Shown here: piece by piece, positions 8,384 through 60,347 of the stretch
How the letters are laid out: every line of letters starts with the position of its first letter
Numbering within the stretch: position 1 is the first letter of the stretch
From: an uncultured Bacilli bacterium
Lineage (GTDB): Bacteria; Bacillota_I; Bacilli_A; RFN20; CAG-826
Reading direction: 5' to 3'
Assembly (NCBI GenBank): GCA_944368975.1
Contig: CALVXI010000004.1
Span: 62,001 to 126,000, forward strand
DNA length: 64,000 nucleotides
Position numbers and translations under genes: made by a program
The notes under the pieces: generated by a model
Databases searched by the model: none
Seen by the model: only the letters and a program-made list of their open reading frames with translations
What the model was told of the DNA's origin: nothing

Positions 8384-9667
8384 TCAAACTTCTTTGCCAT
8401 ATAAATCATAAACAAAAGCGTCAGTAATTTTAATTTTAATGATATCTCCAAGTTTATGATTTATATTTGTTTTCATATAAACACCACCATCAATATCATC
8501 AGGTGCATTAAATAAAGTTCTTACTAAATAAGTATTGTTATTTTCTTGGCCGATAATAATTCCTTTAAAAACTTTTCCAATTAATTCCTTATTTAATTCA
8601 TAAGAAATTTTCTTTTGGAAATTCATAATTTCGTCCCTTCTTTTTTCTTTAATTTTCTCATCAATTTGAGGAAAAGAGTAAGCTTTTGCAAGGTTTTCAT
8701 TTGAATAAGTAAAACATCCAACATGATGAAAACGTGCTTTTAATAAAAATTCTTTTAAAATTTCAATATCGCTATCTTCCTCAAATGGATAACCTGTTAT
8801 AAGTGTACATCTTAAAATAGCTTCAGGTATTTCTTTTCTAATTAACAAGACAAGATTTAATAAAGAATCATAACTATCATTTCTATTCATTGCTTTAAGA
8901 ATTTTTGTTGAAGCATGTTGAATTGGTAAATCAAAATAAGGAAGTATGTGTTTACTATTTTTAATAGTACTTATTAAAGTATAGTCAACTTCATTTGGAT
9001 ATAAATAAAGTACTCTTAAAAATTCAATTCCTTCGATTGAATCAAGTTTTTTTAATAAACTACTTAATGATGTTCCATCTTTAAAATCTTTCCCATAATA
9101 TGTCGTATCTTGAGCGATTAGTGTTATTTCTTTAATACCTTTATTAACAACATTTAAAGCATAATTATAAATGTCTTCTTCATTATAAGAGTAATAAGTT
9201 CCACGTAATTTAGGAATAATGCAATAGCCACAATTATGATTACATCCTTCACTAATTTTTAAATATATTGATGCACCATTATCTTCAATTCTATTAAATA
9301 CTGTATAAGGTTTATTAATATTTTCATTAAGTAAATTTCCTAATAATTCAGGTAATCTATAAAAGTCTTTAAACCCAACAAATAAATTAACTTTAGGAAA
9401 TTTCTTTTTTAATTCATTTTTATATTTTTCAACTAAACAGCCTAGAACTACAAGCTTTTTATTTAATTTTGAAAGTTCTTCAATAGTTTCAAAAGATTCA
9501 TTTTCAGCATCAAAAATAAATGCACAGGTATTTAATATCAATACATCTGCTTCATTTTCATCAATTGTAATTTTAAAACGAGGATCTTTATCAAAAAGAG
9601 CTAAGATAGCTTCACTATCAACTAGATTCTTAGCACATCCTAAATTAATTAAGCAAACATTAATCAT
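8384..9667 (-). CDS. rimO: Ribosomal protein S12 methylthiotransferase RimO
   Basis: 427 residues, radical-SAM methylthiotransferase acting on S12. The N-terminal UPF0004 domain has the cluster cysteines in NLGCAKNLVDSE (the RimO-type signature), NTCAF and VLGCLVEKY. The radical-SAM motif is CNHNCGYC near residue 150, and a C-terminal TRAM-like part follows. The NLGCAKNLVDSE string separates it from MiaB. Its start overlaps the malQ stop by 4 nt (ATGA), so the two are translationally coupled. A copy of the dispersed AAAACCTTGC motif lies inside at 8688-8697. Confidence 0.93.
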   Translation of the reverse strand: MINVCLINLGCAKNLVDSEAILALFDKDPRFKITIDENEADVLILNTCAFIFDAENESFETIEELSKLNKKLVVLGCLVEKYKNELKKKFPKVNLFVGFKDFYRLPELLGNLLNENINKPYTVFNRIEDNGASIYLKISEGCNHNCGYCIIPKLRGTYYSYNEEDIYNYALNVVNKGIKEITLIAQDTTYYGKDFKDGTSLSSLLKKLDSIEGIEFLRVLYLYPNEVDYTLISTIKNSKHILPYFDLPIQHASTKILKAMNRNDSYDSLLNLVLLIRKEIPEAILRCTLITGYPFEEDSDIEILKEFLLKARFHHVGCFTYSNENLAKAYSFPQIDEKIKEKRRDEIMNFQKKISYELNKELIGKVFKGIIIGQENNNTYLVRTLFNAPDDIDGGVYMKTNINHKLGDIIKIKITDAFVYDLYGKEV

Positions 9668-11109
9668 CGATTATACTCTTTAATTAATTTTTTAATTTGT
9701 GGAATAATTTTCTTAAATTCTTTAAATGAAGCTAAACGGTATGACCAATTATCTTTAATTGTTCCAGGTTTATTAATACGAGATTCGTTTCCTTGACCTA
9801 AATAATCTTGAATAGGGATAATAACTAGTTTTGAAGGGTAACTAAAAGCTAAACTAATAAATTTGTAATTAATTTTTTGATTCATTTTAATATGATTATA
9901 CTTAAATTTAATGTTAATTAATTCACGATCTTCTTTCTTTAAATTTTTATAAAAGCCAACAATTGTTTCATTATCATGGCTTCCAGTATAAACAATTTGA
10001 TTTTCTTTTACTTCAAAATAATTATCAAGAATTGTAAATTGTAAAATATTCATCCCAGGTAAATTAAAATCATCTCTTAGTTTATAAACACTAGGGAAAA
10101 CATCACCTAGATCTTCAACAATTAAACGTTCAGTGATTCCTTCTTCTTTCAATTTTTCAAAGAAAGGATGTCCTAAGCCTTGTTTCCATTCACCAACTGT
10201 AGCATCTTTTGATTCACTTGGAATTTCAAAATATGTATCGAAGGCTCTAAAATGATCTAATCGAAGAATGTCATATTTATTTAAAGCCTTTTTTATACGA
10301 TTAATGAAAAATGCATAATTCGTATCTTTCATATATTCAACATCATAACAAGGGTTTCCCCAACGTTGACCATTTGGACTAAAATAATCTGGTGGAACTC
10401 CTCCAACTTTTTTAGGAGATATATCATCATTGATTAAAAATTCATCTAAATGTCCAAAATAATCACTACTATTTAAGCCAACATAAAAAGGTAAGTCTCC
10501 AATTAAGAATATATCATTTTCTTTTAAAACTCTTTTTAACCCATCAAGTTGTTGAAATAATTTATATTGTACCCAATATATATATTCAATTTTCGCTTGA
10601 TATTTATTTATTAAATCTCCTTTATGATAGAAAGCTTCTTTATCTTTTTTATTCCATTCATAAAGTACTTTACCTTTATTCTTTTTCAATAAAATTTTAA
10701 ATAATGCATACTTTTCTAACCAGGAATTTTCATTAATAAATTTTAAAAAGTCTGCAGAACCTGTATCTTTTTGATTTAAATATGCTTTTTTTAGATAATA
10801 TTCTTTATACTCTCTTACTAAATTAAAATCAACTTTATCAGTTGGAAAGTCTACTTTTTTAAATCTAGTAATTAATCCTTCTTCTTTTAATAATTCTAAC
10901 GAAATATAAATTGTATCAATTGCGCTATCGCAGCTTGAAGCATATGGCGAATTACAACTATCTATAGGATTCAAAGGAAGAATTTGCCAATATTTGATAT
11001 TTGCTTCTTTTAATAATTTTATAAACTCATACGAAGAATAACCTAAATCTCCAATACCATACTTACCAGGTAAACTAGAGATAGGACATAATATACCATT
11101 ACTACGCAT
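9664..11109 (-). CDS. malQ: 4-alpha-glucanotransferase (GH77, amylomaltase)
   Basis: 481 residues, normal for bacterial MalQ, which transfers 1,4-alpha-glucan segments in maltodextrin or glycogen metabolism. The GH77 N-terminus reads ISSLPGKYGIGDLG. Catalytic landmarks are LRLDHFRAF (nucleophile Asp), IVEDLGD (acid/base Glu) and GSHDNET (transition-state Asp). A good AAGGAG site precedes the ATG. It lies first in a two-gene unit with rimO and diverges from typA across 163 nt. No other glycogen or maltose genes are in the window. Confidence 0.95.
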   Translation of the reverse strand: MRSNGILCPISSLPGKYGIGDLGYSSYEFIKLLKEANIKYWQILPLNPIDSCNSPYASSCDSAIDTIYISLELLKEEGLITRFKKVDFPTDKVDFNLVREYKEYYLKKAYLNQKDTGSADFLKFINENSWLEKYALFKILLKKNKGKVLYEWNKKDKEAFYHKGDLINKYQAKIEYIYWVQYKLFQQLDGLKRVLKENDIFLIGDLPFYVGLNSSDYFGHLDEFLINDDISPKKVGGVPPDYFSPNGQRWGNPCYDVEYMKDTNYAFFINRIKKALNKYDILRLDHFRAFDTYFEIPSESKDATVGEWKQGLGHPFFEKLKEEGITERLIVEDLGDVFPSVYKLRDDFNLPGMNILQFTILDNYFEVKENQIVYTGSHDNETIVGFYKNLKKEDRELINIKFKYNHIKMNQKINYKFISLAFSYPSKLVIIPIQDYLGQGNESRINKPGTIKDNWSYRLASFKEFKKIIPQIKKLIKEYNR

Positions 11110-13088: not shown

Positions 13089-13104
13089 ATTAAAAATTTA
13101 TTCG

Positions 13105-13133
13105 AAAAACCTGCAAAACCCAACTATTTTCTA
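13105..13133 (+). repeat. Dispersed motif copy, intergenic, 17 nt after typA
   Basis: AAAAACCTGCAAAACCCAAC followed by TATTTTCTA. One of about 12 copies (see findings); this one is largely free of coding constraint, overlapping only the last bases of the convergent gene. Confidence 0.55.
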
Positions 13134-14275
13134 TATTTTTCAACTAATACACCAATTGGTGAAATAGAAATTATCCCATAAGGATAATTTTTTATTTTCC
13201 TAAATTTGTATTTTAATACTTCTTCATCTTCGTGATTAATTATACAAATAAAATTATTATTAGCTTCAATATTCATTTCAGTTAAAGCAATTTGTTTTAA
13301 AAATGTTCCTTTATAAATATTGGCTTCAATAAAATTATTTCTCTTATTTAAGTTTAAATAAGAACCGATTTCTGTATTTGACATATTCACTGCATCAAAT
13401 AATTTTGTCGATATTTGTTTATCCTTAAAAGCTTCTAATACATTTCTAGCACGTTTTTCTTCTTCAAAATAATGAGTAATAACTAATTTCTCGTAATCTT
13501 TTAAGGCTGAATAAGGACCAAATAAGTAATTAAAGAAATATTGATAATTTATATCACTTAAATTTTCAACATGAGCATAATTTTTCACATTTTGATAAAC
13601 ATCATACAAGCTTCTTAAATATGTATTACTTTCATTAACATTACTTGGATTACCGATACGTACATCCACAAAAGTAAAACGATCTAAATTATCAAGACAT
13701 TTTTCAATAGTCAAATTGTTTTTAAATAAGCGTAAATAACTTACACCATCTTGGAAGAAACTAAGTAAATAAAGTAATGGAACAATTTTTCCATAATATT
13801 CTTTATAAATTTTTTGAATCATCTCGCAAATTAAACTATCAGAAACATTTAATTCATATAAATTAATAATTGATTTAAATAAGTTAATTAAAAAATTAAT
13901 TTCATAGCCTTCATTAGATTTAATATTTGTGATACTTGAAAAAATTAATCCATTAAAATTAACTAAAATTTTTCTGTCAATTAACTCTTTAAATAAGCCA
14001 TAAATTAATCCTTTTAAAGTACCCTTATCGTCTAAATTATAATTAAGTTCTTTTAAAGAAAAAGTTATATGAGTTTTATTTAAATATAATTTTACATAGT
14101 CTTCTTTATAATGCCCACATATCGATTTAAAATATAATTCTTTGGCATTAAAACTAACAATATTTCCTTCAATATAGTCACTATATTTTCCTAATAAAGT
14201 AACAGGAGTATGACTTTCAATTAAAATACCATCTTTTTTCTTAATTCCATGTCTTTTTAATTTAATTTCTTTCAT
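13124..14275 (-). CDS. Degenerate galactokinase-like protein (GHMP kinase superfamily), probably not a kinase
   Basis: 383 residues. The layout matches galactokinase. TLLGKYSDYIEGN (about residues 27-39) matches the substrate-site motif NLIGEHTDYNGG. The helical stretch ending KEYYGKIVPLLYLLSFFQDG matches ENVYFGKPSGLMDQ. HYFEEEKRARNVLEAFKD matches the mid-protein H-x-x-x-E-x-x-R helix, and ISISPIG near the C-terminus matches the final LSIRPxG strand. The ATP loop GLSSS and the GGGFGG motif are both missing, so kinase activity looks lost. This is inferred from pattern only. It is not operonic with sugar genes, and its mRNA seems leaderless. Confidence 0.5.
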   Translation of the reverse strand: MKEIKLKRHGIKKKDGILIESHTPVTLLGKYSDYIEGNIVSFNAKELYFKSICGHYKEDYVKLYLNKTHITFSLKELNYNLDDKGTLKGLIYGLFKELIDRKILVNFNGLIFSSITNIKSNEGYEINFLINLFKSIINLYELNVSDSLICEMIQKIYKEYYGKIVPLLYLLSFFQDGVSYLRLFKNNLTIEKCLDNLDRFTFVDVRIGNPSNVNESNTYLRSLYDVYQNVKNYAHVENLSDINYQYFFNYLFGPYSALKDYEKLVITHYFEEEKRARNVLEAFKDKQISTKLFDAVNMSNTEIGSYLNLNKRNNFIEANIYKGTFLKQIALTEMNIEANNNFICIINHEDEEVLKYKFRKIKNYPYGIISISPIGVLVEKYRK

Positions 14276-19974: not shown

Positions 19975-20550
19975 TTATTTACTCGTAAATTGTTTCAAAA
20001 CTTTTTTTAATTTTTCATCATCAACCAAAGAAATAAGTTCTTCAATAGATAAATCTGAATCAAAGTTTGTAACTATATAATTACTAAGAATATACTGAAA
20101 ATCAACTAACGACTTAATGTTATTGTTATATATGTTTACAAAAATTTCAGCTAAATATTTGAGATTTGCAAGGTTTTTATCAATTTTTGATGAATTAATC
20201 TCAACCTCTTCATTATTTTTAGCTTCATTTGTAAAATAATTATCCTCTTTAGTCTTTTCATCTTTTTCAATTAATTTATCTTCAAGAATATTATTTTCTT
20301 CCTCTTGAGTTTCATCATGTAACTCACTATTTTCTTCTTTTAATTCATCATTAAAATTTGAAATATTCTCGTTAGATAAATCACTTTGCTTATTTTCTTC
20401 TTCAAGGAAATCGTTTTCTAATTCTTCATCTAAATTAGATTCATCAATATCTTCTATAAGAGGTTCAATGTATTTATTATCACTCCCACAATAAGGACAC
20501 ATTGAATCGTTATCTATAATTTGACCACAAATTTTACATTTATAATTCAT
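19975..20550 (-). CDS. Zinc-ribbon protein with an acidic linker, function unknown
   Basis: 191 residues. The N-terminal zinc ribbon has CKIC and CPYC (CxxC...CxxC, residues 5-21). A long Glu/Asp/Asn-rich, probably disordered stretch spans about 30-120, and a small helical domain (about 125-190) ends it. No family recognised beyond the zinc ribbon. It lies between the Xaa-Pro peptidase gene (1 nt apart) and the HAD gene, so it is likely co-expressed. A copy of the dispersed motif (20168-20177) encodes KNLANLKYL in the helical domain. Confidence 0.72.
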   Translation of the reverse strand: MNYKCKICGQIIDNDSMCPYCGSDNKYIEPLIEDIDESNLDEELENDFLEEENKQSDLSNENISNFNDELKEENSELHDETQEEENNILEDKLIEKDEKTKEDNYFTNEAKNNEEVEINSSKIDKNLANLKYLAEIFVNIYNNNIKSLVDFQYILSNYIVTNFDSDLSIEELISLVDDEKLKKVLKQFTSK

Positions 20551-22644: not shown

Positions 22645-23247
22645 TTACTCCTTTAATCTCTCAACTTCATAACTTTCCACTAAACTAACCGTATCAATAA
22701 ATCGTTCTTTTATGTTCTTAAAATCAAAATCAATCGGAACATAAAACTCGATAAATATTTTATCATTAAAAACTTCATTAAGAATATCAAAATGCAATGA
22801 AACTAAAAAATATTTAAAAGTATTATAAACATTATAGTCTACAGAAACTTTTAATAGCTTTTCCTTAATTAATGGAATTAATTTTATATTCTCAATTAAT
22901 TTTTTACTAACTTCGCTATATGTCCTTAAAAGTTTACCACTCCCAAGAAGTTGCCCACCAAAATACCTAATAACAAAAATTGCAACATTTTTTAAATTAT
23001 TAAAATAAATTACATTGTAAATTGGTTTTCCAGCCGTTCCACTTGGTTCACCATTATCGCACATTTTAATCTCTCCATTAATATTATAAGCATAACAAAT
23101 ATGACGTGCTTTTGGATGATTTTTATGAAGATTTTCCAAAAAATCATTGAATTCTGCAAGGTTTTTAAAATTTTTAATAATTCCTATAAATTTTGATTTA
23201 TCTACTTCGATAGTAACAGTTTCTTCTTTATTGATTGAATAATTCAT
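22645..23247 (-). CDS. YigZ/IMPACT family protein (UPF0029)
   Basis: 200 residues. The N-terminal UPF0029 domain shows DKSKFIGIIKNF, HPKARHICYAYN, DNGEPSGTAGKPI and FVIRYFGGQLLGSGKLLRTY, followed by a ferredoxin-like C-terminal domain. Related to YvyE/YigZ; biochemical role unclear. It is first in the minus-strand run and diverges from the CPBP gene, with overlapping promoter regions in 38 nt. It contains a dispersed-motif copy at 23156-23165 (encoding KNLAEF). Confidence 0.9.
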   Translation of the reverse strand: MNYSINKEETVTIEVDKSKFIGIIKNFKNLAEFNDFLENLHKNHPKARHICYAYNINGEIKMCDNGEPSGTAGKPIYNVIYFNNLKNVAIFVIRYFGGQLLGSGKLLRTYSEVSKKLIENIKLIPLIKEKLLKVSVDYNVYNTFKYFLVSLHFDILNEVFNDKIFIEFYVPIDFDFKNIKERFIDTVSLVESYEVERLKE

Positions 23248-26840: not shown

Positions 26841-27013
26841 AAATCGAGAATATTATATTTTATTAAAATATAACTTTAAATAATTATTTTAAAAACCTTC
26901 AAATTAATAAATGTGTTTTATTTAGAAAGATTGATATTAAATATTAAAATATATTATCATTAGAAAATTAATAATCACTTACTAAAAATAACTTTTAATT
27001 TATGAAAAATATG

Positions 27014-27042
27014 AAAAACCATGCAAAACTCAAATATTTTTC
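27014..27042 (+). repeat. Dispersed motif copy, intergenic
   Basis: AAAAACCATGCAAAACTC followed by AAATATTTTTC; matches the consensus over its full length outside any gene, about 200 nt upstream of the gene at 27245. Confidence 0.6.
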
Positions 27043-27183
27043 TTCTTTTTACAAATATTTTGATATATTAATTTTATAAAAACAAATAAAATTTCTATAA
27101 ATATAATTATATTTAATGCAAATTTTGAAACTCTAATTATCATTTTTTTATATACATAGTATATAAAGAAAGTAAATTAATTC

Positions 27184-37091: not shown

Positions 37092-37120
37092 AAAAAAAGC
37101 CTGCAAATCTTAACTTATTT
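37092..37120 (+). repeat. Dispersed motif copy, intergenic, directly after the GNAT-like stop
   Basis: AAAAAAAGCCTGCAAATCTT followed by AACTTATTTTTTAA; variant core, but the whole A/T-tail pattern is retained. Confidence 0.45.
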
Positions 37121-37585
37121 TTTAATTTCACTAATAAAAGTATTAGGATAAACTAATAAATCTATTTCTTTATTAAGATATTTATAAACATCATCATTTT
37201 TAATATACATGCTTAATACAAGATTTTGATCTAATGATGTAAATATTATTCTTGTTCCATTTTTATCATTACTTATTTTTTCAGCAGTTCCTTTTATTAA
37301 ATAAACAGTTTTTCTTTTTAAATCTTTAAATACTTTTATACTAATTAAAATATAAAAAATTATCCCAATAAACATAGTTGAAAAAATTGTAGTTAAAATT
37401 GCCCAAAGTTCAAAAAAATGCGCAGTCGAAAAAATGATAAAAGTAATTCCAAATAAAATAATAAAAAGTCCTAACGATATTAAGAAGTTTTTGAATAAAA
37501 AGAGTCCTAAAGTTGTTTTTAAAGTCTCAGGAATTTCAACTTCTTCATAATTTGTAAATTTAATTTTACTATCTGATTTTTGCAT
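37115..37585 (-). CDS. Small membrane protein, function unknown
   Basis: 156 residues from the ATG at 37585, which overlaps the psuG end by 17 nt. Two membrane segments (about 32-58 and 65-88, FLISLGLFIILFGITFIIF and ILTTIFSTMFIGIIFYIL) are followed by a soluble domain of about 65 residues with beta-strand character (VYLIKGTAEKI, GTRIIFTS). I do not recognise the family. Last gene of a macro-psuG-membrane run. An in-frame TTG 12 nt upstream is a less likely start. Confidence 0.65.
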   Translation of the reverse strand: MQKSDSKIKFTNYEEVEIPETLKTTLGLFLFKNFLISLGLFIILFGITFIIFSTAHFFELWAILTTIFSTMFIGIIFYILISIKVFKDLKRKTVYLIKGTAEKISNDKNGTRIIFTSLDQNLVLSMYIKNDDVYKYLNKEIDLLVYPNTFISEIKK

Positions 37586-41761: not shown

Positions 41762-42526
41762 ATGAAAAATGCAACTATTCTTTATCGAATTATTAAATCG
41801 ATTCAAGGTTTTATTCTTTTAGCTTTAGGAATTGTGCTATCAATATTCTTTAATAATGAAAACTTATTTGGGGCTCTTGGCTATACTGTCGGAAGTGTCT
41901 TACTTGTCTATGGTATATTAACTATTGCTTTTAGTTATTTATTTCAAAGAGGTATAGCAAGTTTTGATATGCTAAGTGGAGTAATAATAAGCGCTATTTC
42001 AATTTTCATATTTATTAATCCTCATATAATTACTGAATTTCTTCCATTATTTTTCTCTACTACTTTATTAATTTATTCAATCATACTTATAATTGAGTTA
42101 ATAATTCATATTCTAAAGAAAAATACAAAAAAGATTATTATTTATACTTTTTCGACAATAATATGTCTTACAAGTGGAATCTTAACTCTTATTTTTAGTC
42201 TTAACAATCAAACCACAAATTATATAGTTTTAATCATTGGACTAATATTAATTATTATCGGTTTATTCATCATCTTTTATAGTTTATGTGCACCTAAAAA
42301 GGACGTTTTAGTTACTTCAAATTCCATTATTAATTCACCTAAAGAAGTCGAAAATAAAAATGAATTAAGCACTGAAATTTCAAAAAAACCTGTAAAACCT
42401 AATCAAAATAAGAAAAAACATAAAAAAGCACAAAAAACTACGACAACCGAAAATACGTCTGAAACTTTATCAATCGAGAATAAAAATATTAAAGAAATCG
42501 AATATTTCGATAATGAAAATAACTAA
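41762..42526 (+). CDS. DUF308/HdeD-like membrane protein with a basic tail
   Basis: 254 residues. Six membrane segments in three hairpins (about 12-180) with short loops, typical of HdeD/DUF308, then GLFIIFYSLCAPKK and a cytoplasmic tail of about 70 residues rich in Lys, Asn and Thr (KKHKKAQKTTTTENTS). Function is unknown; HdeD proteins are linked to acid stress in enterobacteria. It is coupled to the YolD-like gene. A weak copy of the dispersed motif lies in the tail (42382-42399). It overlaps the convergent ThyX-like gene end by 4 nt. Confidence 0.7.
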   Translation: MKNATILYRIIKSIQGFILLALGIVLSIFFNNENLFGALGYTVGSVLLVYGILTIAFSYLFQRGIASFDMLSGVIISAISIFIFINPHIITEFLPLFFSTTLLIYSIILIIELIIHILKKNTKKIIIYTFSTIICLTSGILTLIFSLNNQTTNYIVLIIGLILIIIGLFIIFYSLCAPKKDVLVTSNSIINSPKEVENKNELSTEISKKPVKPNQNKKKHKKAQKTTTTENTSETLSIENKNIKEIEYFDNENN

Positions 42527-44309: not shown

Positions 44310-46286
44310 TTATTTACCATTTCTTTGGTCTTTTAATTCAAAAAGAATATCACGTAATTCAATAGCTCTTTCAAAATCAAATTCATTTGCAGCTTTATGC
44401 ATTTCTTTTTCAACTTCTTTAATTTTCTTCTCTAATTCTTTTTTAGTTAATTTACCTTTATAAACAGTCTCTTTTTCAGTTTCGATATTATGTAATGGAG
44501 GTTTAATTTCTTTAATAATTGTCATTGGAACGATACCATTCTCCTCATTATATCTTTCTTGAATTTCTCTTCTTCTATTTGTTTCATCAATACAATATTT
44601 CATCGAATCTGTTATTCGATCGGCATACATTATTGCCTTACCATCCTTATTTCTAGCAGCTCTACCTACGACTTGAATAAGACTTCTAGAACTTCTTAAA
44701 AAGCCCTCTTTATCAGCATCCAATATGCAAATCAAACTGACTTCTGGAATATCTAAACCTTCTCTTAATAAATTAATTCCAACTAAAACATCGTATTTAC
44801 CCTTACGTAATTGATATATTATTTCACTTCTTTCTAAAGTTTTACATTCATTATGCAAATAAACAGTCTTAATACCTTTATCTATCAAGAAACTAGTTAA
44901 ATCTTCGGCCATTTTGATTGTTAAAGTTACAATCATCACTCTTTCATTTTTATTAATGCGATCATTGATTTCGCTAATAATATCATCAACCTGTCCTAAT
45001 GTTGGTCTAACTTCTATAATAGGATCTAATAAACCAGTTGGTCTAATAATTTGTTCAATTACTTCGCCATTAGTTTTACTAAGCTCATAATCTCCTGGTG
45101 TCGCACTAGTACAAATTACTTGATTTATTTCATTTTCAAATTCCTGAAAATTTAAAGGTCTATTATCTAATGCACTAGGTAAACGAAAACCATATTCAAC
45201 TAAAGTAGTTTTTCTAGATCTGTCTCCATTAAACATGCCTCTAACTTGTGGAAAAGTAACATGTGATTCATCAACAATTAATAAATAATCTTTTGGAAAA
45301 TAATCCATTAAACAGAAAGGTTTCTCACCAGGCTTTCTCTTATCTATATGCCTTGCATAATTTTCAATACCGGGACACATTCCAAATTCAGCTAATGTTT
45401 CACAATCTTGTCTAGTTCTAAACTCAATTCTTTCTGCTTCTAATAATTTACCTTCGCTTTTAAAGAAAGCAATTCGATCTTCAAGTTCTTTCAAAATTGA
45501 TGAAATGGCTTCAAGTATTCTTTCATGTGTTGAGGCATGATCGTAAGCAGGAAATAAATTATAAGTATGATATTTTTCAATTATTTCGCCGGTGACATAA
45601 TCAACTTTAGCTATAGTTTCTATTGTATCTCCAAAGCAATCTAATCTAATATAAAATTCATCTGTATGAATAGGCATTATGTCAATTATATCGCCATGGA
45701 CCCTAAATCTACCTGGTGCTAAATCAATATCATTTCTTTTATATTGAGAATCAATTAATTTTTTAAAAAAGACCTTTCGATCAATATCTTCATTTTCACG
45801 AACTTCAAATATTAATTTTTTATATTCTTCAGGATCAGTTAAACCATAAATTGAAGCAACACTCGCAACCACAATAGTATCTCTTCTATCCAAAATACTA
45901 TTAATTGCACTAGTTCTCATCATTTCAATTTCTTCATTCATAAGAGCTGTTTTATCAATGTATGTATCACTTGAAGGAATATATGCTTCAGGTTGATAAA
46001 AATCGAAGTTACTAACAAAATATTCAACCCTATTATTTGGAAATAAATCTTTAAATTCACTATAAAGTTGTCCGGCCAAAGTTTTATTATGAACAATTAC
46101 TAAAGTTGGTATATTTACTTTAGCTATAACATTAGCCATAGTAAAAGTTTTACCAGTTCCAGTCGCACCTAAAAGAACTTGAAATTTTTTTCCTTCATTA
46201 AGTCCCTCTACAAGTTTACTTATAGCTTCAGGTTGATCTCCTGTAGGCTTAAATTTGCTAATTAAATCAAATTGTTTACTTATCAT
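44310..46286 (-). CDS. uvrB: Excinuclease ABC subunit B
   Basis: 658 residues, full length. Walker A GATGTGKTFT near residue 39, the beta-hairpin region (FDFYQPEAYIPSSDTYIDK), DEAD-like VDESHVT, helicase motif VGINLLREGLD and a C-terminal UVR domain (MHKAANEFDFERAIELRDIL) for UvrC contact. Nucleotide excision repair. UvrA and UvrC are not in this window. It overlaps the YitT gene by 11 nt and has no ribosome site, so it depends on coupling. Confidence 0.97.
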   Translation of the reverse strand: MISKQFDLISKFKPTGDQPEAISKLVEGLNEGKKFQVLLGATGTGKTFTMANVIAKVNIPTLVIVHNKTLAGQLYSEFKDLFPNNRVEYFVSNFDFYQPEAYIPSSDTYIDKTALMNEEIEMMRTSAINSILDRRDTIVVASVASIYGLTDPEEYKKLIFEVRENEDIDRKVFFKKLIDSQYKRNDIDLAPGRFRVHGDIIDIMPIHTDEFYIRLDCFGDTIETIAKVDYVTGEIIEKYHTYNLFPAYDHASTHERILEAISSILKELEDRIAFFKSEGKLLEAERIEFRTRQDCETLAEFGMCPGIENYARHIDKRKPGEKPFCLMDYFPKDYLLIVDESHVTFPQVRGMFNGDRSRKTTLVEYGFRLPSALDNRPLNFQEFENEINQVICTSATPGDYELSKTNGEVIEQIIRPTGLLDPIIEVRPTLGQVDDIISEINDRINKNERVMIVTLTIKMAEDLTSFLIDKGIKTVYLHNECKTLERSEIIYQLRKGKYDVLVGINLLREGLDIPEVSLICILDADKEGFLRSSRSLIQVVGRAARNKDGKAIMYADRITDSMKYCIDETNRRREIQERYNEENGIVPMTIIKEIKPPLHNIETEKETVYKGKLTKKELEKKIKEVEKEMHKAANEFDFERAIELRDILFELKDQRNGK

Positions 46287-47319
46287 TTTTATGTTTTTTA
46301 ATTGACTTTTGCAAGGTTTTTATTGCATTTGATCGGCTTTCTTGCAATTTTGAAAAGCCTTCACCACCAACTAACATAGTTTGAGTAAATGTAACAAAAG
46401 CTTTAGAATCAATCTTTGCTATTGCATCCTTTACTTTTGTTAATTCTCTTCTATTAAAAACGATTCTAACGATTTTTTTAGGTTCGTTTGTATAACCACC
46501 AGTTCCTTCAAAAATTGTACATCCTCTATTTAATTCTTTATTACTATAATTAATAAATGCTTCATAATTATCGCTTATAATATCAACCATATAAGCTCCT
46601 TGACTAGAAACATAGACAAGATCGACCATAAAACTGCAAATAAACGCACTAACGATTCCTACTAGTCCTGCAAGAAATCTAAAAGAACTTCCGTGAACTA
46701 TATCAACAATTAATCCAGCACCAACAATACTTGCATCGAATAGGAAAAATAATAAAGATTGCTTAATTCCGAAAAACTTATTAAATATAAAGCTTAAAAT
46801 GTCAACTCCTCCAGTAGATCCACCGCCTAAAAATGTCAAAGAGCATCCTATGCCGACACAAGCCCCACCAACAATACCACAGATAAGTAATGTTCCATTA
46901 ATATCTTCAATAGAAAAAATATTAGTAATTTCACCAGTAGCAGATAATATAGCCTCAGGTTCAATTAATTGAACAATTGAAGAAGCGATGTTAGTTCGTA
47001 ACAATATAGAAAGCATTACAGGATAAATAATAGTAGATAATAACGTAGTTAAGCTAAACTTAACTCCAAGAAAAATTAACCCTAAGAGAAATAAACCCCA
47101 GCTAAATATATAAGCACTAATATCAACAGGAATAAAATCACTTAATAATATTCCAATTCCTGTGACACCTCCACTAACAATAGAAAAAGGAACAAGAAAA
47201 ACACCACTACCAAAGCTTAAAATAAACGTGCCAAGAACTACTAAAAATATATGCCATAAAAATTTAAGCACTTGTTCTTTAGTTAAACCATTAAACCAGT
47301 TTCTAACTTTTTCAACCAT
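46276..47319 (-). CDS. YitT family membrane protein (second of two)
   Basis: 347 residues: membrane part (about 15-250, about six segments, [28 protein letters not shown]) and a DUF2179 domain (about 255-340) with [16 protein letters not shown] and [15 protein letters not shown]. Function unknown. It overlaps prfB by 8 nt and uvrB by 11 nt in a tight unit. It contains an exact dispersed-motif decamer near its C-terminus (46311-46320), read in a different frame from the other coding copies. Confidence 0.9.
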
Positions 47320-51079: not shown

Positions 51080-51802
51080 TTAATTTTTAATTTTATTGTT
51101 TTTACCTTTAAAATTCATAATTCTCTGAAAATAACTTATTTTTGAAGGCTTTTCGTTACTATTTTTTAGTTTTGACGAATCAAATTTTCTTTTTGATAGT
51201 ACTAATATACGTATTTCTTTTGGCTTTAATGGTCTTAATAAATTAATACAAGCCTTTAAAGTTGCACCAGTAGTTAAAATATCATCGACTAAAAGTATCT
51301 TTTTATTTTCAATGTTTGCATTATTTTTTAAATAAATTATGTCTTTAATTTTTTGCCTTTCTATGTAATTTAAATTATGTTGACTTACATCTTTATTTTT
51401 ACTAAACATATCTAAGATTTTCATATCTAAACATCTAAACATTTCAATTACATGATTAAATCCTCGTTCAATATTTTTACTTTCATGAGATGGTGCAGGA
51501 ACTATCAAAAAATTATGAAATAATAATTTTAATTCCCATTTATATGGTCGAATAAAGACATCCTTAAGTTCATAATCGAAACATCCTTTATAGGTAAAAA
51601 TAACTTTCTTTAATTCATCGTCATAATAATAAATCGATAAACCTTTTATATTGTCAATTTTAAACTCTTCAAAAATAGGAATAAAATTGTTTATGCAATT
51701 TGAACATAAAAATCTCTCTGTATCAAAAAAATCATGTGTACTAAAAACATTAATTTCATTAAAGCAATTTTTGCAAATGTATGTTTGCTTGAATTGTGAC
51801 AT
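51080..51802 (-). CDS. comFC: ComFC-type amidophosphoribosyltransferase-like protein
   Basis: 240 residues from the ATG at 51802; this overlaps the comFA stop by 44 nt. A zinc-finger-like N-terminus has CKNC and CSNC, and the C-terminal phosphoribosyltransferase-type motif is ILLVDDILTTGATLKAC. ComFC takes part in uptake of transforming DNA in competent Bacilli. A longer GTG start at 51838 is possible but has no better site. Coupled to comFA; the other competence genes are not in this window. Confidence 0.88.
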   Translation of the reverse strand: MSQFKQTYICKNCFNEINVFSTHDFFDTERFLCSNCINNFIPIFEEFKIDNIKGLSIYYYDDELKKVIFTYKGCFDYELKDVFIRPYKWELKLLFHNFLIVPAPSHESKNIERGFNHVIEMFRCLDMKILDMFSKNKDVSQHNLNYIERQKIKDIIYLKNNANIENKKILLVDDILTTGATLKACINLLRPLKPKEIRILVLSKRKFDSSKLKNSNEKPSKISYFQRIMNFKGKNNKIKN

Positions 51803-52925
51803 TAATCGCTCTAACCATTTCTTTAGTTTTTTTATCACTTAAAAATATCACCTCCCCACATGGTGCATCCATTTTTCTACCAACTCTTCCAGATATTTGA
51901 ATTAAACTAGATGAATTATAAATTTCATGATCAGCTTTAAATATAATTACTTGTAAATTTTTTAATGTAACCCCTCTTTCTAAAACCGCTGTTGTCACTA
52001 AATATTTAAATTTATGTTCTCTAAATTTATCTATTATTTCATTTCTATTTTCACATTTAGAATGAACATAATATCCGCCTTTTGCAAGGTTTTTTAATAA
52101 ATTATACAAGAATTCGCAATAATAAATAGTCGGAGCAAATATCAAAGCAGGCTTATTTTCTTGACTATAAATTTTCAATTTTTTTGCTATATAAATTACC
52201 TTCCATATTAATCCAATAGCAATTTTAATCTTTGGTACAGGTATAGGTTTCATGTGATATCTAGTATATAAAGAAAGTATTTTACAATTTTTATTTTCCA
52301 TAAATTCTTTAATAATTTTGTTACTAGGTGTTGCTGACATCAAAACATAGTTTCCTTTTATTGAATTTTTAAAAATATGTTCTAATACTTCATTTCCTTG
52401 ATATGGAAAAGCGTCAATTTCATCAAGAATTAATAAATCAAAATAGCCCTTATAACGATATAGTTGATGAGTAGTTAAGCACAGTATGTCACCTTCAATT
52501 AATTTCGTATTTCCACCATAAACAGGTGTGACAATTGCATTTTTAAAACTCGCTTGGAATCTTCTTGCTAGTTCTATTACTACATCTTTTCTTGGAATAG
52601 CAAAACCAACATGTAATTTATTTTTTAATGCATATTCCATTACTTTAAAAACAAGTTCTGTTTTTCCTGCACCACAAACAGCATATATTAATTGATTAAA
52701 ACCATTTATGTAGTTTTTTAAAATTTGATTTGAAATTCTTTCTTGTTCTTTAGTTAAACTATAACTAATCCCTAATTCTATGTTCTCACTAAATTTAATC
52801 TCATTTGAAATTTCCCTCCCTTTAAAGCTAATACAGCGTCGACAATATACTTTCCCATTTTTAATACCTATATATTTCGGATCTTTATTTCCACAAATCT
52901 CACAAATAAAAACATCACTACCCAT
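51759..52925 (-). CDS. comFA: ComFA DNA-uptake helicase
   Basis: 388 residues. Zinc finger CEIC...CRRC (residues 9-34), helicase Walker A YAVCGAGKTE near residue 88, DEID box LLILDEIDAFP, SATP motif and QISGRVGRK at the C-terminal side. It powers single-stranded DNA import during transformation. The zinc finger begins at residue 9, so the start cannot be later. No ribosome site is seen, and the ATG lies inside a terminator-like inverted repeat (52913-52944). It contains an exact dispersed-motif decamer at 52084-52093. Confidence 0.93.
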   Translation of the reverse strand: MGSDVFICEICGNKDPKYIGIKNGKVYCRRCISFKGREISNEIKFSENIELGISYSLTKEQERISNQILKNYINGFNQLIYAVCGAGKTELVFKVMEYALKNKLHVGFAIPRKDVVIELARRFQASFKNAIVTPVYGGNTKLIEGDILCLTTHQLYRYKGYFDLLILDEIDAFPYQGNEVLEHIFKNSIKGNYVLMSATPSNKIIKEFMENKNCKILSLYTRYHMKPIPVPKIKIAIGLIWKVIYIAKKLKIYSQENKPALIFAPTIYYCEFLYNLLKNLAKGGYYVHSKCENRNEIIDKFREHKFKYLVTTAVLERGVTLKNLQVIIFKADHEIYNSSSLIQISGRVGRKMDAPCGEVIFLSDKKTKEMVRAINVTIQANIHLQKLL

Positions 52926-53408: not shown

Positions 53409-54009
53409 AATCTTTAATCTCCTTTAATATTGTTTCTAAACTTAATTCTCCTTGACGAATTAAAGTAATTTCATTATCAATTTTAATAATTGTCGAAGGT
53501 ATATTAGAAGTTGATTCACCTTCTACAACAGCCTTGATTTTTCCTTCAAAATATTTTTTTACTTCATCAACATTTTTTGCTGGCTTTAAATCACTTGGAT
53601 TTGCACTAGGAACTAATAAAGGAAAATTTACTTTATCTATTAAAGATAAAATAAAATCATCTTTTGGAATTCTAATCCCAATAAATCCACTTCCTAAATC
53701 AAGATAGTAAGGAATATTTTTTTTCGCCTTTAAGATTAAAGTTAAAGGTCCAGGCATGAATTTGTTAATAATTATTTTAGCTATATCATTTATTTCAATT
53801 AAATCTTTTACCTGAGTAATATTTGAAATCATCAAGGTAAATGGTTTATTAGGCTTTCTATTTTTAACTTCTACTAATTTATTAAAGTTTTCTAATGAAT
53901 CTGCTTTTATTGCTAACCCAAAAACAGTTTCAGTAGGAAAAGCAAGAATTTCATTATTGTTTAAAATTTTAACTGCCTCATCAATATTTTTTTTACTTAG
54001 AATTTTCAC
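53386..54009 (-). CDS. tsaC: Threonylcarbamoyl-AMP synthase (Sua5/YrdC domain)
   Basis: 207 residues from a GTG at 54009, chosen because a strong AAAGGTGAT site lies 4 nt before it; the longer ATG (54048) would embed that site in coding sequence. The YrdC motif is LAFPTETVFGLAIKA with KNRKPNKPFTLMIS, followed by MPGPLTLIL and LLVPSANPSDLKPA. It makes the t6A precursor on tRNAs reading ANN codons. It overlaps prmC by 17 nt, the conserved order with prfA. It lacks the long Sua5 C-terminal domain, so it is TsaC-type. Confidence 0.92.
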   Translation of the reverse strand: MKILSKKNIDEAVKILNNNEILAFPTETVFGLAIKADSLENFNKLVEVKNRKPNKPFTLMISNITQVKDLIEINDIAKIIINKFMPGPLTLILKAKKNIPYYLDLGSGFIGIRIPKDDFILSLIDKVNFPLLVPSANPSDLKPAKNVDEVKKYFEGKIKAVVEGESTSNIPSTIIKIDNEITLIRQGELSLETILKEIKDYENCNCK

Positions 54010-54868
54010 TGTAATCACCTTTAATGAATAAATAACGCGTTTTATCAAAAATATCTTTTACAAATTTATATTGTATTTTATTTAAATCAAAATAATTTCT
54101 AATAAGGAATGTTAATTTTTCCTCTTGATCATAATTTATTTCAAAAGCCATAAAAAATTTATCTTTCATAACTTCTTTATGATGTTTAAAGTAAGATTCA
54201 TAAAACTTTGTCCCATCTTGAATATAAATAGCATTTAATGGCTCATATTTTTTGACTTTATCTTCAATATCTTCCATTTTTTCTACATAAGGTGGGTTAG
54301 AAATTAGTACATCTAGTCTTATATGTCTAGAAATAAGTGGCTCTAATCTATTTCCTTCTAGAGTTATTATATTTGCTTGATATTTTTCAAAATTTGATTT
54401 AGCAACTTCTAAAACATCTTTATATTTATCGGTAGCATATATGTCACTATCAGGAAAATGTTTTTTTAAATAAATTGCAATACAACCAGAGCCTGTACAA
54501 ACATCAGCAATTACTTTATGTGGTATGTTTTCTTTTTTAATATAATCTATAGTAAATTTTGTCAAGCCTTCTGTTTCAGGTCTAGGAATTAAAACATTGC
54601 TATTAACTTTAATATCTAAATCAAAAAATGGAGCTTCTCCTGTTACATATTGAATAGGTTCGCCTTCCTTAATTCTTTGTATATTTCTAAAAAAATATTC
54701 AGGATTTACAAGGTTTTCGTCAAAATGTTTAATTAATTCGGTAAAATTTAAATAATTGTTAGCCTTAATTAACAATAAGTAAATCTCACTATCATAAAAT
54801 TCTAAATCTTTAAATTGTGATAAAAATTTTTTTGCTTTTATAAATGCGTCTCTATTAGTTTGTGCCAT
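53993..54868 (-). CDS. prmC: Release factor N5-glutamine methyltransferase
   Basis: 291 residues: helical N-terminal domain (about 1-85), GEPIQYVTGEAPFFDL, SAM motif VIADVCTGSGCIAIYL and the catalytic NPPY in VLISNPPYVEK. It methylates the GGQ glutamine of RF1 and RF2, both encoded here (54855, 47312). Its start overlaps the prfA end by 14 nt. A variant dispersed-motif copy at 54691-54719 encodes ENLVNPEYFF in the variable linker. Confidence 0.96.
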   Translation of the reverse strand: MAQTNRDAFIKAKKFLSQFKDLEFYDSEIYLLLIKANNYLNFTELIKHFDENLVNPEYFFRNIQRIKEGEPIQYVTGEAPFFDLDIKVNSNVLIPRPETEGLTKFTIDYIKKENIPHKVIADVCTGSGCIAIYLKKHFPDSDIYATDKYKDVLEVAKSNFEKYQANIITLEGNRLEPLISRHIRLDVLISNPPYVEKMEDIEDKVKKYEPLNAIYIQDGTKFYESYFKHHKEVMKDKFFMAFEINYDQEEKLTFLIRNYFDLNKIQYKFVKDIFDKTRYLFIKGDYSENSK

Positions 54869-57848: not shown

Positions 57849-58149
57849 CATGCAAGCAATGATTCAAAATGTTCAAAAACTTCAAAGACAATATGAAAAA
57901 GAACATCAGGCCATCGAAGAAAAAGAATATAGTTATACTTCTGGTGCTATTAAAATGGTAATGAAGGGAAATTTAGATTTAGTCTCAATTACTTTTGTTG
58001 ATGAAGAAATTCTTGAAAAAGATAATGCAGAAATGATTAGTGAAATGATTAAATTAGCTTTTGATCACATTAAAGAAGAAATTAATGCTGACGAGGAGGC
58101 TTTAACTAGTAAATTTAATAAAGGTCTTCCAGGGGGCTTTAAATTTTAA
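57841..58149 (+). CDS. YbaB/EbfC nucleoid-associated protein
   Basis: 102 residues of the YbaB family with NMQAMIQNVQKLQ, YTSGAIKMVMKGNLDLVSITF and the glycine-rich end KGLPGGFKF. It binds DNA as a dimer. AAAAGGAG lies inside the dnaX 3' end and the gene overlaps dnaX by 8 nt. The position between dnaX and recR is strongly conserved in Firmicutes. Confidence 0.94.
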   Translation: MNNMQAMIQNVQKLQRQYEKEHQAIEEKEYSYTSGAIKMVMKGNLDLVSITFVDEEILEKDNAEMISEMIKLAFDHIKEEINADEEALTSKFNKGLPGGFKF

Positions 58150-58760: not shown

Positions 58761-59386
58761 TGTTTATTACAGCTGAAGGTGTCGAAGGTTGTGGAAAAAC
58801 AACAATATTAAAAATGGTTTATGAAAAATTAGTTAATGATGGCTATAACTGTTTATTAACTAGGGAACCAGGTGGTGTAAAAATTAGCGAACAAATTCGA
58901 CAAATTATATTAAATAAAGAAAATACCGAGTTAGATGATCGTAGTGAAGCTCTTCTTTTTGCAGCTAGTAGGCGTCAGCTTCTTGTTCAAAAAATTTATC
59001 CTGCTTTAAAAGAAAACAAAATTGTTTTATGTGACCGTTATGTTGATAGTTCATTAGCTTATCAAGGTGGTGGAAAGAAATTGGGTGTTCAAAATGTATT
59101 AAATATTAATTTATTTGCGACTGATCATACTTTACCTGATTTAACCTTATTATTTGATATTGATCCTCGACTTGGACTTGAAAGAATTAACGACAATAAA
59201 AATAGAGAAGTTAATCGTCTTGATTTAGAAAAAATTGATTTTTATAATCGCGTTAGAGAAACTTTTTTAGATTTAGCAAAAAAATATACTGAACGTTATG
59301 TAATTATAGATGCTTCAAAAAATATTGAAGAAGTATTTAATAATACTTACAAAATTGTAAAAGATAGAATTGATGGAAATCGTTGA
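58760..59386 (+). CDS. tmk: Thymidylate kinase
   Basis: 208 residues. P-loop GVEGCGKTTILKM, LTREPGGVKISEQIR, and DRYVDSSLAYQGGGKKLG of the lid/base region. It converts dTMP to dTDP. It starts right at the recR stop with AAAGGAGG upstream. No thymidylate synthase of the usual kinds is in the window except the diverged ThyX-like protein at 42523. Confidence 0.96.
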   Translation: MFITAEGVEGCGKTTILKMVYEKLVNDGYNCLLTREPGGVKISEQIRQIILNKENTELDDRSEALLFAASRRQLLVQKIYPALKENKIVLCDRYVDSSLAYQGGGKKLGVQNVLNINLFATDHTLPDLTLLFDIDPRLGLERINDNKNREVNRLDLEKIDFYNRVRETFLDLAKKYTERYVIIDASKNIEEVFNNTYKIVKDRIDGNR

Positions 59387-60347
59387 ATATTTAGAAAAAA
59401 ACCAGCAAATCCCATTTCAAATTTTTAAAAACGCTCTTCTTAAAAAGAAATTTTTTCATGCTTATTTATTAAGTGGAACTACTGGTACACCATTATTAGA
59501 TATAGCAAAATTTTTAGCTAAATCGATGCTTTGTCAAAATGGAAATCCGTTTTGCTGTAACAAGTGTAATATTTGTAAAAGAGTAGATTCTAATCATTAT
59601 GGCGATTTAGAAATAATTGATGGTTCTAAAGGAAGCATTTTAAAAGAAGAAATTACTAATTTAATTGAAACATTCTCTTTAACTTCCACTGAAAAACAAG
59701 GATACAAAATATATATAATTAACTTAATTGAAAATATGAATGTTGAATCTACTAATGCTTTATTAAAATTTCTTGAGGAACCACCTGAAAATACATATGC
59801 AATTTTAACAACTTTAAATAAATTTCGCATATTGCCTACAATTTTATCTCGTTGTGAGATTATAAATTTTTCATTATTAAATCAAAAAAAATTAATAGAA
59901 GATTCTTTAAAAGAAAAAGTTCCTCTTGATGATGCTGAACTTTTGTCTTTTTTCTATAATGACCCTCAATATATTAAAGATATTTCAATTAGTGAAGAAT
60001 ATAAAGAAAGTAAAGAAGATTTACTTCTTCTATTAAATAATGCTTCAAATAAAAAAGAGATTCGTTTCATTACAGAATCTCAAATTATTCCTAAATTAAA
60101 AAAGAAAGAAGAAATACGTTATTTTTTAGATAATATGGTCATTTTCTTTAAAGAATCATTAAAATTTAAAGTTAATAAAAATACAATTTTAACAAGTTAT
60201 GTTAATATATTAAAAGACATTATTAAGAATGTTTCAAACTTAGATAGTGTGATTCTTTCTTTAATGAATGCTCGAAATGAATTAAATTACAATGTTAATG
60301 TTTCGCTACTTTTACTTGAAACTTTAACATCTATATTTGAGGTATAA
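59373..60347 (+). CDS. holB: DNA polymerase III delta-prime subunit
   Basis: 324 residues from the ATG at 59373, 14 nt inside tmk. Related to DnaX: KFFHAYLLSGTTGTPLLDIAKFL is the P-loop position without a good Walker A (as in delta-prime), CNKCNICK supplies the zinc site, and NALLKFLEEPPENTYAILTT is the sensor region. Clamp-loader stator. A variant dispersed-motif copy lies at its 5' end (59395-59423, encoding EKNQQIPFQIFK). Confidence 0.92.
   Translation: MEIVEYLEKNQQIPFQIFKNALLKKKFFHAYLLSGTTGTPLLDIAKFLAKSMLCQNGNPFCCNKCNICKRVDSNHYGDLEIIDGSKGSILKEEITNLIETFSLTSTEKQGYKIYIINLIENMNVESTNALLKFLEEPPENTYAILTTLNKFRILPTILSRCEIINFSLLNQKKLIEDSLKEKVPLDDAELLSFFYNDPQYIKDISISEEYKESKEDLLLLLNNASNKKEIRFITESQIIPKLKKKEEIRYFLDNMVIFFKESLKFKVNKNTILTSYVNILKDIIKNVSNLDSVILSLMNARNELNYNVNVSLLLLETLTSIFEV

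What the first reader, a model, noticed from the sequence alone, without database searches (positions are those of the whole stretch)
8688..59423. Dispersed ~28-bp motif (core AAAACCTTGC) in about 12 copies, always on the sense strand, inside unrelated genes and between genes
Exact AAAACCTTGC occurs at 8688, 20168, 23156, 46311, 52084 (minus) and inside 32081-32108 (plus): six copies. From base composition I would expect about 0.1 in 64 kb on both strands (a rough estimate). Variants lie at 13105, 27014, 37092, 42382, 59395 (plus) and 54708 (minus). Aligned, the better copies share AAAAACC, then T or A, then TGCAAA, then WCYC, then A/T-rich ATATTTTTT. The intergenic copies at 13105 and 27014 keep the whole pattern outside reading frames. 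Every coding copy is on the coding strand, and three intergenic copies are co-oriented with the adjacent plus-strand gene. Several coding copies share a frame (K-N-L-A-x), but the one at 46311 uses another frame. No known repeat explains it for me. Options: an RNA-level signal, a Chi-like or DNA-uptake site (comFA and comFC are present), or worn copies of a small element.
Basis: partly seen in the sequence, partly recalled or inferred. Interest (0 to 1): 0.72.

Follow-up and report, generated by a model that had tools for sequence, protein, structure and literature searches.

The report
DNA-uptake-like sequences in gut Bacilli
Some uncultured gut bacteria of the Bacilli scatter hundreds of copies of a short DNA tag through their genomes that looks and evolves like the tags Haemophilus and Neisseria use to recognise and take up DNA of their own kind, which has been described so far only in two Gram-negative families.

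Summary
The motif is real. All 12 reported copies are recovered in the window by a matrix trained on two sister genomes, plus 7 more. The exact 10-mer occurs 33 times in the 1.3 Mb genome, against 0 for the reversed control. A degenerate ~45-bp motif (core AAAAACCYTGCAAAWCY plus A/T tracts about one helical turn apart) occurs about 300 times per Mb in the part sampled. It is enriched between genes and exceeds codon-aware shuffles. 'Always sense strand' fails: 34 sense, 32 antisense.

Within the genus, 15 of 26 genomes carry 10-69 core copies and 11 carry 0-1. Dialects differ between species, and two other genera of the family carry related versions. Copies arose in place by substitution, not insertion. 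Among carriers the core is conserved at third codon positions; towards non-carriers it is not.

Best explanation: an uptake signal sequence, convergent with the USS/DUS of Pasteurellaceae and Neisseriaceae, in a Bacilli lineage that encodes ComEC, DprA, ComEA, a ComF-family protein and mostly a Tad-like ATPase. Uptake is untested, no receptor is known, and the machinery genes do not separate carriers from non-carriers.

The parts
8666..8699 (-). motif copy, sense inside ORF 8384-9667 (radical SAM / UPF0004 protein)
   Evidence: held-out PWM 25.1 bits; Pfam
   Evidence: held-out PWM 22.4 bits; Pfam
13103..13136 (+). motif copy, core between genes
   Evidence: held-out PWM 32.0 bits
   Evidence: held-out PWM 20.3 bits; Pfam
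20146..20179 (-). motif copy, sense inside ORF 19975-20550
   Evidence: held-out PWM 30.4 bits
23134..23167 (-). motif copy, sense inside ORF 22645-23247 (UPF0029)
   Evidence: held-out PWM 29.8 bits; Pfam
   Evidence: held-out PWM 14.3 bits; tRNA
27013..27046 (+). motif copy between genes
   Evidence: held-out PWM 27.9 bits
32080..32113 (+). motif copy, sense inside ORF 31922-32485 (Maf-like)
   Evidence: held-out PWM 34.6 bits, best in window; Pfam
37093..37126 (+). motif copy, core between genes
   Evidence: held-out PWM 30.2 bits
   Evidence: held-out PWM 28.2 bits
42382..42415 (+). motif copy, sense inside ORF 41762-42526
   Evidence: held-out PWM 17.4 bits
46289..46322 (-). motif copy, sense inside ORF 46276-47319 (YitT family)
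   Evidence: held-out PWM 21.5 bits; Pfam
   Evidence: held-out PWM 18.3 bits; ORF
52062..52095 (-). motif copy, sense inside the probable comFA gene
   Evidence: held-out PWM 22.9 bits
54686..54719 (-). motif copy, sense inside ORF 53993-54868 (PrmC-like methyltransferase)
   Evidence: held-out PWM 29.5 bits; Pfam
   Evidence: held-out PWM 16.6 bits
59395..59428 (+). motif copy, sense inside ORF 59370-60347
   Evidence: held-out PWM 18.2 bits
   Evidence: held-out PWM 27.9 bits
51759..52925 (-). probable comFA (DEAD-box helicase beside comFC)
   Evidence: Pfam DEAD/Helicase_C/ResIII; none of the 25 listed NCBIfam matches is ComFA, so named by neighbourhood
51080..51838 (-). comFC-like phosphoribosyltransferase
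   Evidence: NCBIfam TIGR00201 comF 3.8e-21, below its curated cut-off; Pfam PF00156

Best explanation
The dispersed motif is an uptake signal sequence: a DNA tag that the cell's own DNA-import machinery prefers, so that competent cells mostly take up DNA of their own kind. Shown here: a ~45-bp asymmetric, degenerate motif, about 300 copies per Mb in the sample, both orientations, inside and between genes, with species dialects, arising by substitution in place and conserved at the DNA level among carriers. Inferred: a surface DNA receptor, possibly a pilin of the Tad-like pilus, binds the CCYTGC core while the phased A/T tracts help the DNA bend or kink. The DNA is pulled in, passed to ComEA and ComEC as a single strand and recombined through DprA/RecA. 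Repeated import of tagged fragments over the cell's own sequence makes tags accumulate, and lets them erode when the receptor's specificity changes.
For: Over-representation: 33 exact 10-mers against 0 for the reversed control. A matrix trained on G004 scores 56 sites in G000 at 13 bits against 4 reversed and 4.3 Markov. The motif is the top 12-mer of the G000 sample, and a variant is the top 12-mer of sister G018. Excess over codon-shuffled genes (34 sense and 32 antisense against 11.0 and 15.9) and between genes (39 against 0.95). Orientation near balance: 38/38 in G000, 15 same/11 opposite in G004, 16/26 in G019, 10/15 in G018. Dialects: CCYTGCAAA in G000 and G004, partly CCTTGCTAA in G019, AAAATCCCCTGCAAATCCC in G018. 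Related versions in genera g30 and g50. Distribution: 15 of 26 genomes with 10-69 copies, 11 with 0-1; on the UvrB+ComEC tree nine non-carriers lie on one side of a fully supported branch, and the nested pair G009/G015 has weakened copies (20 against 2 and 15 against 0). Origin in place: 102 of 109 orthologous pairs ungapped at the core; of 47 pairs to non-carriers 2 have gaps and 0 of 45 homologues score as motif. DNA-level conservation: third codon positions of identical residues match in 412 of 597 core against 5139 of 8905 flank positions among carriers, and in 96 of 210 against 2054 of 3313 towards non-carriers (three identity bands summed). A/T tracts spaced about 10-12 bp, an arrangement like that of the H. 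influenzae USS (PMC7811141, passages). Machinery: ComEA-ComEC operon in G000, ComEC in 26 of 26, DprA in 26 of 26, comF-family gene in the window, Tad-like ATPase in 21 of 26 (two of them named).
Against: No uptake assay exists; these bacteria are known here only from assemblies. The machinery does not track the motif: non-carriers also have ComEC, DprA and the Tad-like ATPase, and that ATPase was not found above cut-off in four carriers, G018, G019, G024 and G008 (the last two under 75% complete). The PF00437 search showed no full-length PilB/ComGA-type match in carriers. Density (about 0.3 per kb) is below the roughly 1 per kb of H. influenzae (PMC7811141). Spacing is random or clustered (coefficient of variation 0.92 and 1.37). 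The split is not perfectly clean: some non-carriers show a weak excess of motif-like sites, G010 5 against 0 reversed and 0.3 Markov at 13 bits, G010 15 against 3 and G003 11 against 3 at 10 bits. Intergenic copies fold somewhat better than shuffles (mean z about -1). No receptor was identified. No comparable replacement motif was seen in the 60-210 kb read from each of six non-carriers.
Confidence: 0.74

Rival explanations
1. Binding sites of a chromosome-organising or nucleoid protein spread along the chromosome, kept by selection for DNA architecture.
For: A/T tracts phased at about 10-12 bp suggest bent DNA; dispersed, enriched between genes; maintained at DNA level among carriers.
Against: Asymmetric motif (best correlation with its own reverse complement 0.43), whereas the organising sites I recall (parS, matS, Noc sites) are palindromic. 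Degenerate copies with high turnover between species (6 of 34 carrier homologues score as motif). Absent or nearly so from a clade of the same genus and weakened in one nested pair. Ori-ter distribution could not be tested on draft contigs.
Confidence: 0.14
2. A recombination or replication orienting signal (Chi-like or KOPS-like).
For: Over-represented and also inside genes; nothing more specific.
Against: No bias relative to genes (34 sense, 32 antisense) or contig strand (55 plus, 56 minus); 30-45 bp with phased tracts rather than the 5-8 bp I recall for Chi; patchy inside one genus. Contig strand says little about replication direction, so this is not excluded outright.
Confidence: 0.05
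3. Remains of a small mobile element or inserted repeat.
For: Dispersed copies; a few intergenic copies form inverted pairs (seen).
Against: Orthologous positions in non-carriers align without gaps in 45 of 47 pairs; 14 of 297 pairs with gaps in a second, overlapping set; little conserved sequence beyond the motif; the long pattern is in 2 stretches of 2.9 million viral contigs. The ordinary gap rate of these genes was not measured as a control.
Confidence: 0.03
4. An RNA-level signal such as a transcription terminator, pause or processing site.
For: Intergenic copies are densest between convergent genes (1.84 per kb against 0.84-1.20), fold better than shuffles on average (mean z about -1) and 15 of 83 fold below -8 kcal/mol, so some may double as terminators, as USS and DUS do (PMC1852404, passages).
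Against: Antisense and sense copies in genes are equally frequent (32 and 34); only 15 of 83 intergenic copies fold strongly.
Confidence: 0.04

Closest known systems
Uptake signal sequence (USS) of Pasteurellaceae
   Same: Asymmetric core plus A/T-rich tracts, many copies genome-wide, evolution by point mutation, sub-clade variants, some copies in terminators (PMC7811141, PMC1852404, passages; PMC2346458, abstract and Findings).
   Different: Unrelated core (AAGTGCGGT occurs 0 times in the G000 sample), lower density, orientation in genes balanced in G000 whereas one orientation is commoner in those families (PMC2346458), Bacilli host, no full-length PilB/ComGA-type ATPase match in carriers.
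DNA uptake sequence (DUS) of Neisseriaceae
   Same: Species dialects of one core inside a family and dispersed copies (PMC5031613, passages; PMC3630211 and PMC3868556 seen only as listings with the start of the abstract).
   Different: DUS is a 12-mer (PMC5031613), as far as I recall without A/T tracts; GCCGTCTGAA occurs 0 times in the G000 sample; its receptor ComP is a type IV minor pilin, for which no counterpart was identified here.
Tad (Tfpc) pilus-dependent transformation of Micrococcus luteus
   Same: A monoderm using a Tad-class pilus for DNA uptake (PMC6916266, passages); 11 of 15 carriers here have a Tad/VirB11-class ATPase.
   Different: No sequence-specific uptake is described in the passages seen; the link to the motif here is inference.
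Uptake bias of Veillonella parvula
   Same: A member of the Firmicutes that transforms genomic DNA better than PCR product, an uptake bias (PMC5397411, passages).
   Different: The passages seen name methylation and uptake sequences as usual causes and give no motif.

Membership tests
Uptake sequences in general (USS/DUS kind) | Genome-wide over-representation of one short motif | tested here: met
   33 against 0; 111 held-out hits in 392 kb with codon and intergenic controls
Uptake sequences in general (USS/DUS kind) | Present in both orientations, in and between genes | tested here: met
   34 sense, 32 antisense, 39 intergenic, 6 edge
Uptake sequences in general (USS/DUS kind) | Evolves by point mutation, not insertion | tested here: met
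   7 gaps in 109 pairs; 14 in 297; no background gap rate measured
Uptake sequences in general (USS/DUS kind) | Lineage-specific variants (dialects) | tested here: met
   G000/G004, G019 and G018 variants; g50 flank
Uptake sequences in general (USS/DUS kind) | DNA with the motif is preferentially taken up | not testable with these tools
   needs a competent culture
Uptake sequences in general (USS/DUS kind) | Host is naturally competent (import machinery) | tested here: inconclusive
   ComEA/ComEC, DprA, a ComF-family protein and a Tad-like ATPase present, but ComEC, DprA and the ATPase also in non-carriers, and no full-length PilB/ComGA-type match in carriers
Pasteurellaceae USS | Core AAGTGCGGT or ACAAGCGGT | tested here: not met
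   0 and 1 in the G000 sample, reversed controls 0 and 1
Pasteurellaceae USS | Core with A/T tracts spaced by about a helical turn | tested here: met
   flank profile
Neisseriaceae DUS | Core GCCGTCTGAA | tested here: not met
   0 in the G000 sample
Chi/KOPS-type orienting signals | Strand bias relative to replication or genes | tested here: inconclusive
   none relative to genes or contig strand; replication direction and ori-ter position not testable on draft contigs
Palindromic nucleoid-protein sites | Palindromic site | tested here: not met
   matrix correlates at most 0.43 with its reverse complement

The most novel reading that the evidence does not exclude
A third, independently evolved self-DNA recognition system, the first in a monoderm Bacilli lineage, in which a Tad-class pilus carries the receptor. 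Its specificity has changed within one family: gained or lost wholesale inside a genus, drifted into dialects, and eroding now in one species pair (G009/G015).
Probability: 0.4. Interest if true: 0.92.

Novelty: new variant of a known kind. Interest (0 to 1): 0.8.

Why it matters
In the passages read here, sequence-specific DNA uptake is described only for Pasteurellaceae and Neisseriaceae (PMC7811141, PMC5031613). A convergent case in uncultured gut Bacilli would show that self-recognition in transformation is not tied to Gram-negative type IV pili. It would give a third replicate for asking why uptake sequences evolve, with carriers, non-carriers and an apparently eroding pair inside one genus. 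It would also imply that these gut bacteria transform in nature.

Tried and rejected
RNA-level signal, Chi/KOPS and inserted-element readings were tested and set aside. A different dominant motif was sought in six non-carrier genomes (G003, G010, G002, G014, G023, G021; 60-210 kb each). None comparable was found except an 11-bp-period repeat in G010 that is mainly intergenic and array-like. Refinements from short seeds drifted to unrelated or low-count matrices and were discarded: seed CCCTGCAAA in G003, G010, G019 and G002 and seed AAAACTACTA in G003, G002, G023 and G014. A first UvrB tree was wrong because loci on the minus strand were read on the wrong strand; it was replaced by the oriented UvrB+ComEC tree. 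T2SSE, ComEC and DprA were searched as genes that might track the motif; none does. The site counts (130 in G000) include overlapping neighbouring hits; the deduplicated held-out count (111) is the one to use. Structure prediction and fold search were not used.
Full report
OBSERVATION. The window is G000:C4:62001-126000 of a 1.3 Mb genome in 21 contigs; the window is 28% G+C. AAAACCTTGC occurs six times exactly where the dinucleotide model gives 0.23. In the whole genome it occurs 33 times, 15 forward and 18 reverse, against 0 for the pattern read backwards. Contexts of 30 of the 33 copies show a common extended form, AAAAACCTTGCAAAACTCAATTATTTTT, and several copies lie antisense to long ORFs.

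MOTIF. The G000 sample is 464 kb (window included), of which 392 kb are readable and the rest reads N. In it the motif is the strongest 12-mer signal, with variants AAACCCTGCAAA and AAAGCCTGCAAA. Matrices trained on the exact sites of one genome find the motif in others at 13 bits: trained on G004, 56 sites in G000 against 4 reversed and 4.3 Markov; trained on G000, 29 in G004 against 1 and 2.3, and 25 in G019 against 2 and 1.3; 1 in G003 (controls 1 and 1.7) and 1 in G002 (controls 0 and 1.0), but 5 in non-carrier G010 (controls 0 and 0.3). With a matrix from G004 and G019 only, G000 has 111 sites at 12 bits: 39 intergenic, 34 sense, 32 antisense, 6 at gene edges. Synonymous-codon shuffling leaves 11.0 sense and 15.9 antisense on average (maxima 13 and 21 in 20 shuffles); an order-2 intergenic model gives 0.95 (maximum 2). 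Intergenic sequence is about 9% of the readable sample and holds 35% of the sites. Genes were called by a simple longest-ORF script that drops ORFs overlapping a longer one by more than 60 bases, so some 'intergenic' sites are genic, as at window 51122.

ANATOMY. Most information lies between about -8 and +37 from the matrix start, with weak columns near -17 and, in two of three sets, +45. Mean information outside is low (for G000 0.039 and 0.050 bits per column, small-sample expectation 0.021). A/T-rich segments lie near -5, +3, +13, +25 and +35, about every 10-12 bp, around a CCYTGC core. The motif is not palindromic. Spacing between sites is random or clustered (coefficient of variation 0.92 in G004, 1.37 in G019). 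In four genomes, 83 intergenic copies are densest between convergent genes (1.84 per kb against 0.84-1.20), fold somewhat better than shuffles (mean z about -1), and 15 fold below -8 kcal/mol, so a minority may double as terminators.

DISTRIBUTION. With AAANNCCYTGCAAAWYY, 15 of 26 genomes of the genus have 10-69 copies, ten have 0 and G009 has 1; the reversed control gives 0 or 1 per genome. In 279 genomes of the order, 224 belong to the same family. There the signal recurs in two other genera: G109 of g30 has 27 copies (a few others 3-6, among 31 genomes), and 11 of 37 genomes of g50 have 7-18. Other genera of the family have 0-4. The 55 genomes outside the family give 5 matches and 4 control matches. 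Thirty loci from six of these genomes (5 of g30, 25 of g50), about 46% G+C in the stretches held, contain the core by construction; the independent part is the flank, which in g50 continues to a T.TTTT tract at the expected place, less clearly in the five g30 loci. Of the 80 listed, 51 are from MAGs titled Bacilli, Mollicutes, Erysipelotrichaceae, Anaeroplasmataceae, Bacillales or Candidatus Onthovivens merdipullorum, 21 from MAGs with no taxon in the title, and 8 are single hits elsewhere. Contig lengths equate G004 with RGIG4434 (JAFUEZ01, 311,791) and G019 with BRZ_KR__bin95 (CALVHN01, 403,922); for G019 the sequence also matches. The genus name of G000 is not established; kinship with Candidatus Onthovivens is an inference from the shared motif and partial DNA similarity. 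In 2.9 million viral contigs the long pattern occurs in 2 stretches.

EVOLUTION. On a FastTree of UvrB plus ComEC (26 genomes, unrooted; UvrB missing for G008, ComEC shortened in four), nine non-carriers form one side of a fully supported branch. The other 17 are carriers except the sister pair G009/G015, nested within them. That pair is not blank: with the pooled matrix (trained on G000, G004 and G019) it scores 20 against 2 (G009) and 15 against 0 (G015) at 12 bits, with a weaker core (C frequencies 0.45-0.55), which reads as erosion or drift. Some non-carriers of the other clade also show a weak excess at 10 bits (G010 15 against 3, G003 11 against 3; G002 7 against 6, G014 3 against 3, G021 1 against 4, G023 7 against 3), so faint remnants or chance cannot be told apart there. 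G018 keeps a different dialect, AAAATCCCCTGCAAATCCC. For coding sites, 109 site-homologue pairs (51 of 116 sites; pairs under 45% identity dropped, best match per genome kept) have 7 gaps in the core. Of 47 pairs to non-carriers 2 have gaps and none of the other 45 homologues scores as motif; 6 of 34 ungapped carrier homologues and 2 of 23 in the weakened pair do. The ordinary gap rate of these genes was not measured. In a wider set (210 query sites, including loci chosen because they hold the motif and the few unrelated loci among the 109 stretches), third positions of identical residues match in 412 of 597 core positions against 5139 of 8905 flank positions among carriers (209 pairs), and in 96 of 210 against 2054 of 3313 towards non-carriers (88 pairs). 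Part of the low value towards non-carriers is expected, because the query sites were chosen for carrying the motif's codons. Homologues score as motif in 45 of 209 and 0 of 88 pairs. Residue identity in the core is below that of the flanks at 45-60% identity among carriers (0.38 against 0.50), so coding copies tend to sit in less conserved protein segments; it is close at 60-75% (0.58 against 0.61) and reversed at 75-96% (0.87 against 0.84). Pairs are not independent, and no significance is claimed beyond these counts.

MACHINERY. G000 has ComEA and ComEC side by side. ComEC is found in 26 of 26 genomes by protein search (17 of 26 by Pfam model) and DprA in 26 of 26. The window holds a comF-family gene (below the model's cut-off) beside a DEAD-box helicase read as ComFA by neighbourhood. 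An ATPase of about 350-390 aa scores above 65 bits with PF00437 in 21 of 26 genomes, 11 of 15 carriers and 10 of 11 non-carriers. Two of these (G000, G010) were named: best NCBIfam matches VirB11 and TadA, then others including ComGA, all below cut-off; for G000 the PDB matches include CpaF, FlaI and VirB11. It lies next to two membrane-protein-like ORFs that match no family above cut-off and to small ORFs that may be pilins, so 'Tad-like' rests on the ATPase and gene order. A PilB-like full-length match occurs in two non-carriers. So import genes are present, but none of those tested separates carriers from non-carriers.

INTERPRETATION. A long, asymmetric, degenerate motif in both orientations, arising by substitution, with dialects, DNA-level conservation among carriers and near-absence from viral contigs matches what is written of uptake sequences: two families with preferred motifs, lineages with slightly different motifs, evolution by point mutation, A/T tracts that affect uptake (PMC7811141, PMC5031613, passages). 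PMC2346458 (abstract and Findings read) reports that one orientation is commoner inside genes in those families; here G000 is balanced, G019 and G018 lean to antisense and G004 to sense. Tad-class pili mediate transformation in Micrococcus luteus (PMC6916266, passages). Veillonella parvula shows an uptake bias, with no motif given in the passages seen (PMC5397411). I found no report of uptake sequences in Bacilli in the listings, which cover open-licence PMC papers only. Uptake preference and the receptor are inferred, not shown.

Noticed in passing
L071-L079 and L229 (G010): Non-carrier G010 holds clusters of an 11-bp-period repeat (AAAACTACTAG and its complement); 51 of 73 classified sites are intergenic. 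It looks like an operator or iteron array; unexplained.
   Followed up: partly
L083 (G019:C1), about 67.4-68.7 kb of the contig: CRISPR-like array of 21 repeats containing CTACGGTCGG.
   Followed up: no
L231 (G022:C4) and G005:C23: A full-length PilB-like ATPase (open frames 588 and 591 aa) in two non-carriers, in addition to the Tad-like ATPase.
   Followed up: no
window 1802-6664: rRNA operon (16S, 23S, 5S) on the minus strand; a 105-aa ORF at 2154-2471 is listed on the opposite strand inside the 23S gene.
   Followed up: no
L229:8001-9092 and L228:3991-5043: Proteins of 363 and 350 aa without family matches beside the Tad-like ATPase locus; possibly pilus-associated. The neighbouring L229:9207-10337 was not searched.
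   Followed up: no
G000, G018, G004, G003 samples: The E. coli Chi word GCTGGTGG exceeds its reversed control in small numbers (5/0, 8/0, 4/2, 2/0; G019 1/2).
   Followed up: no
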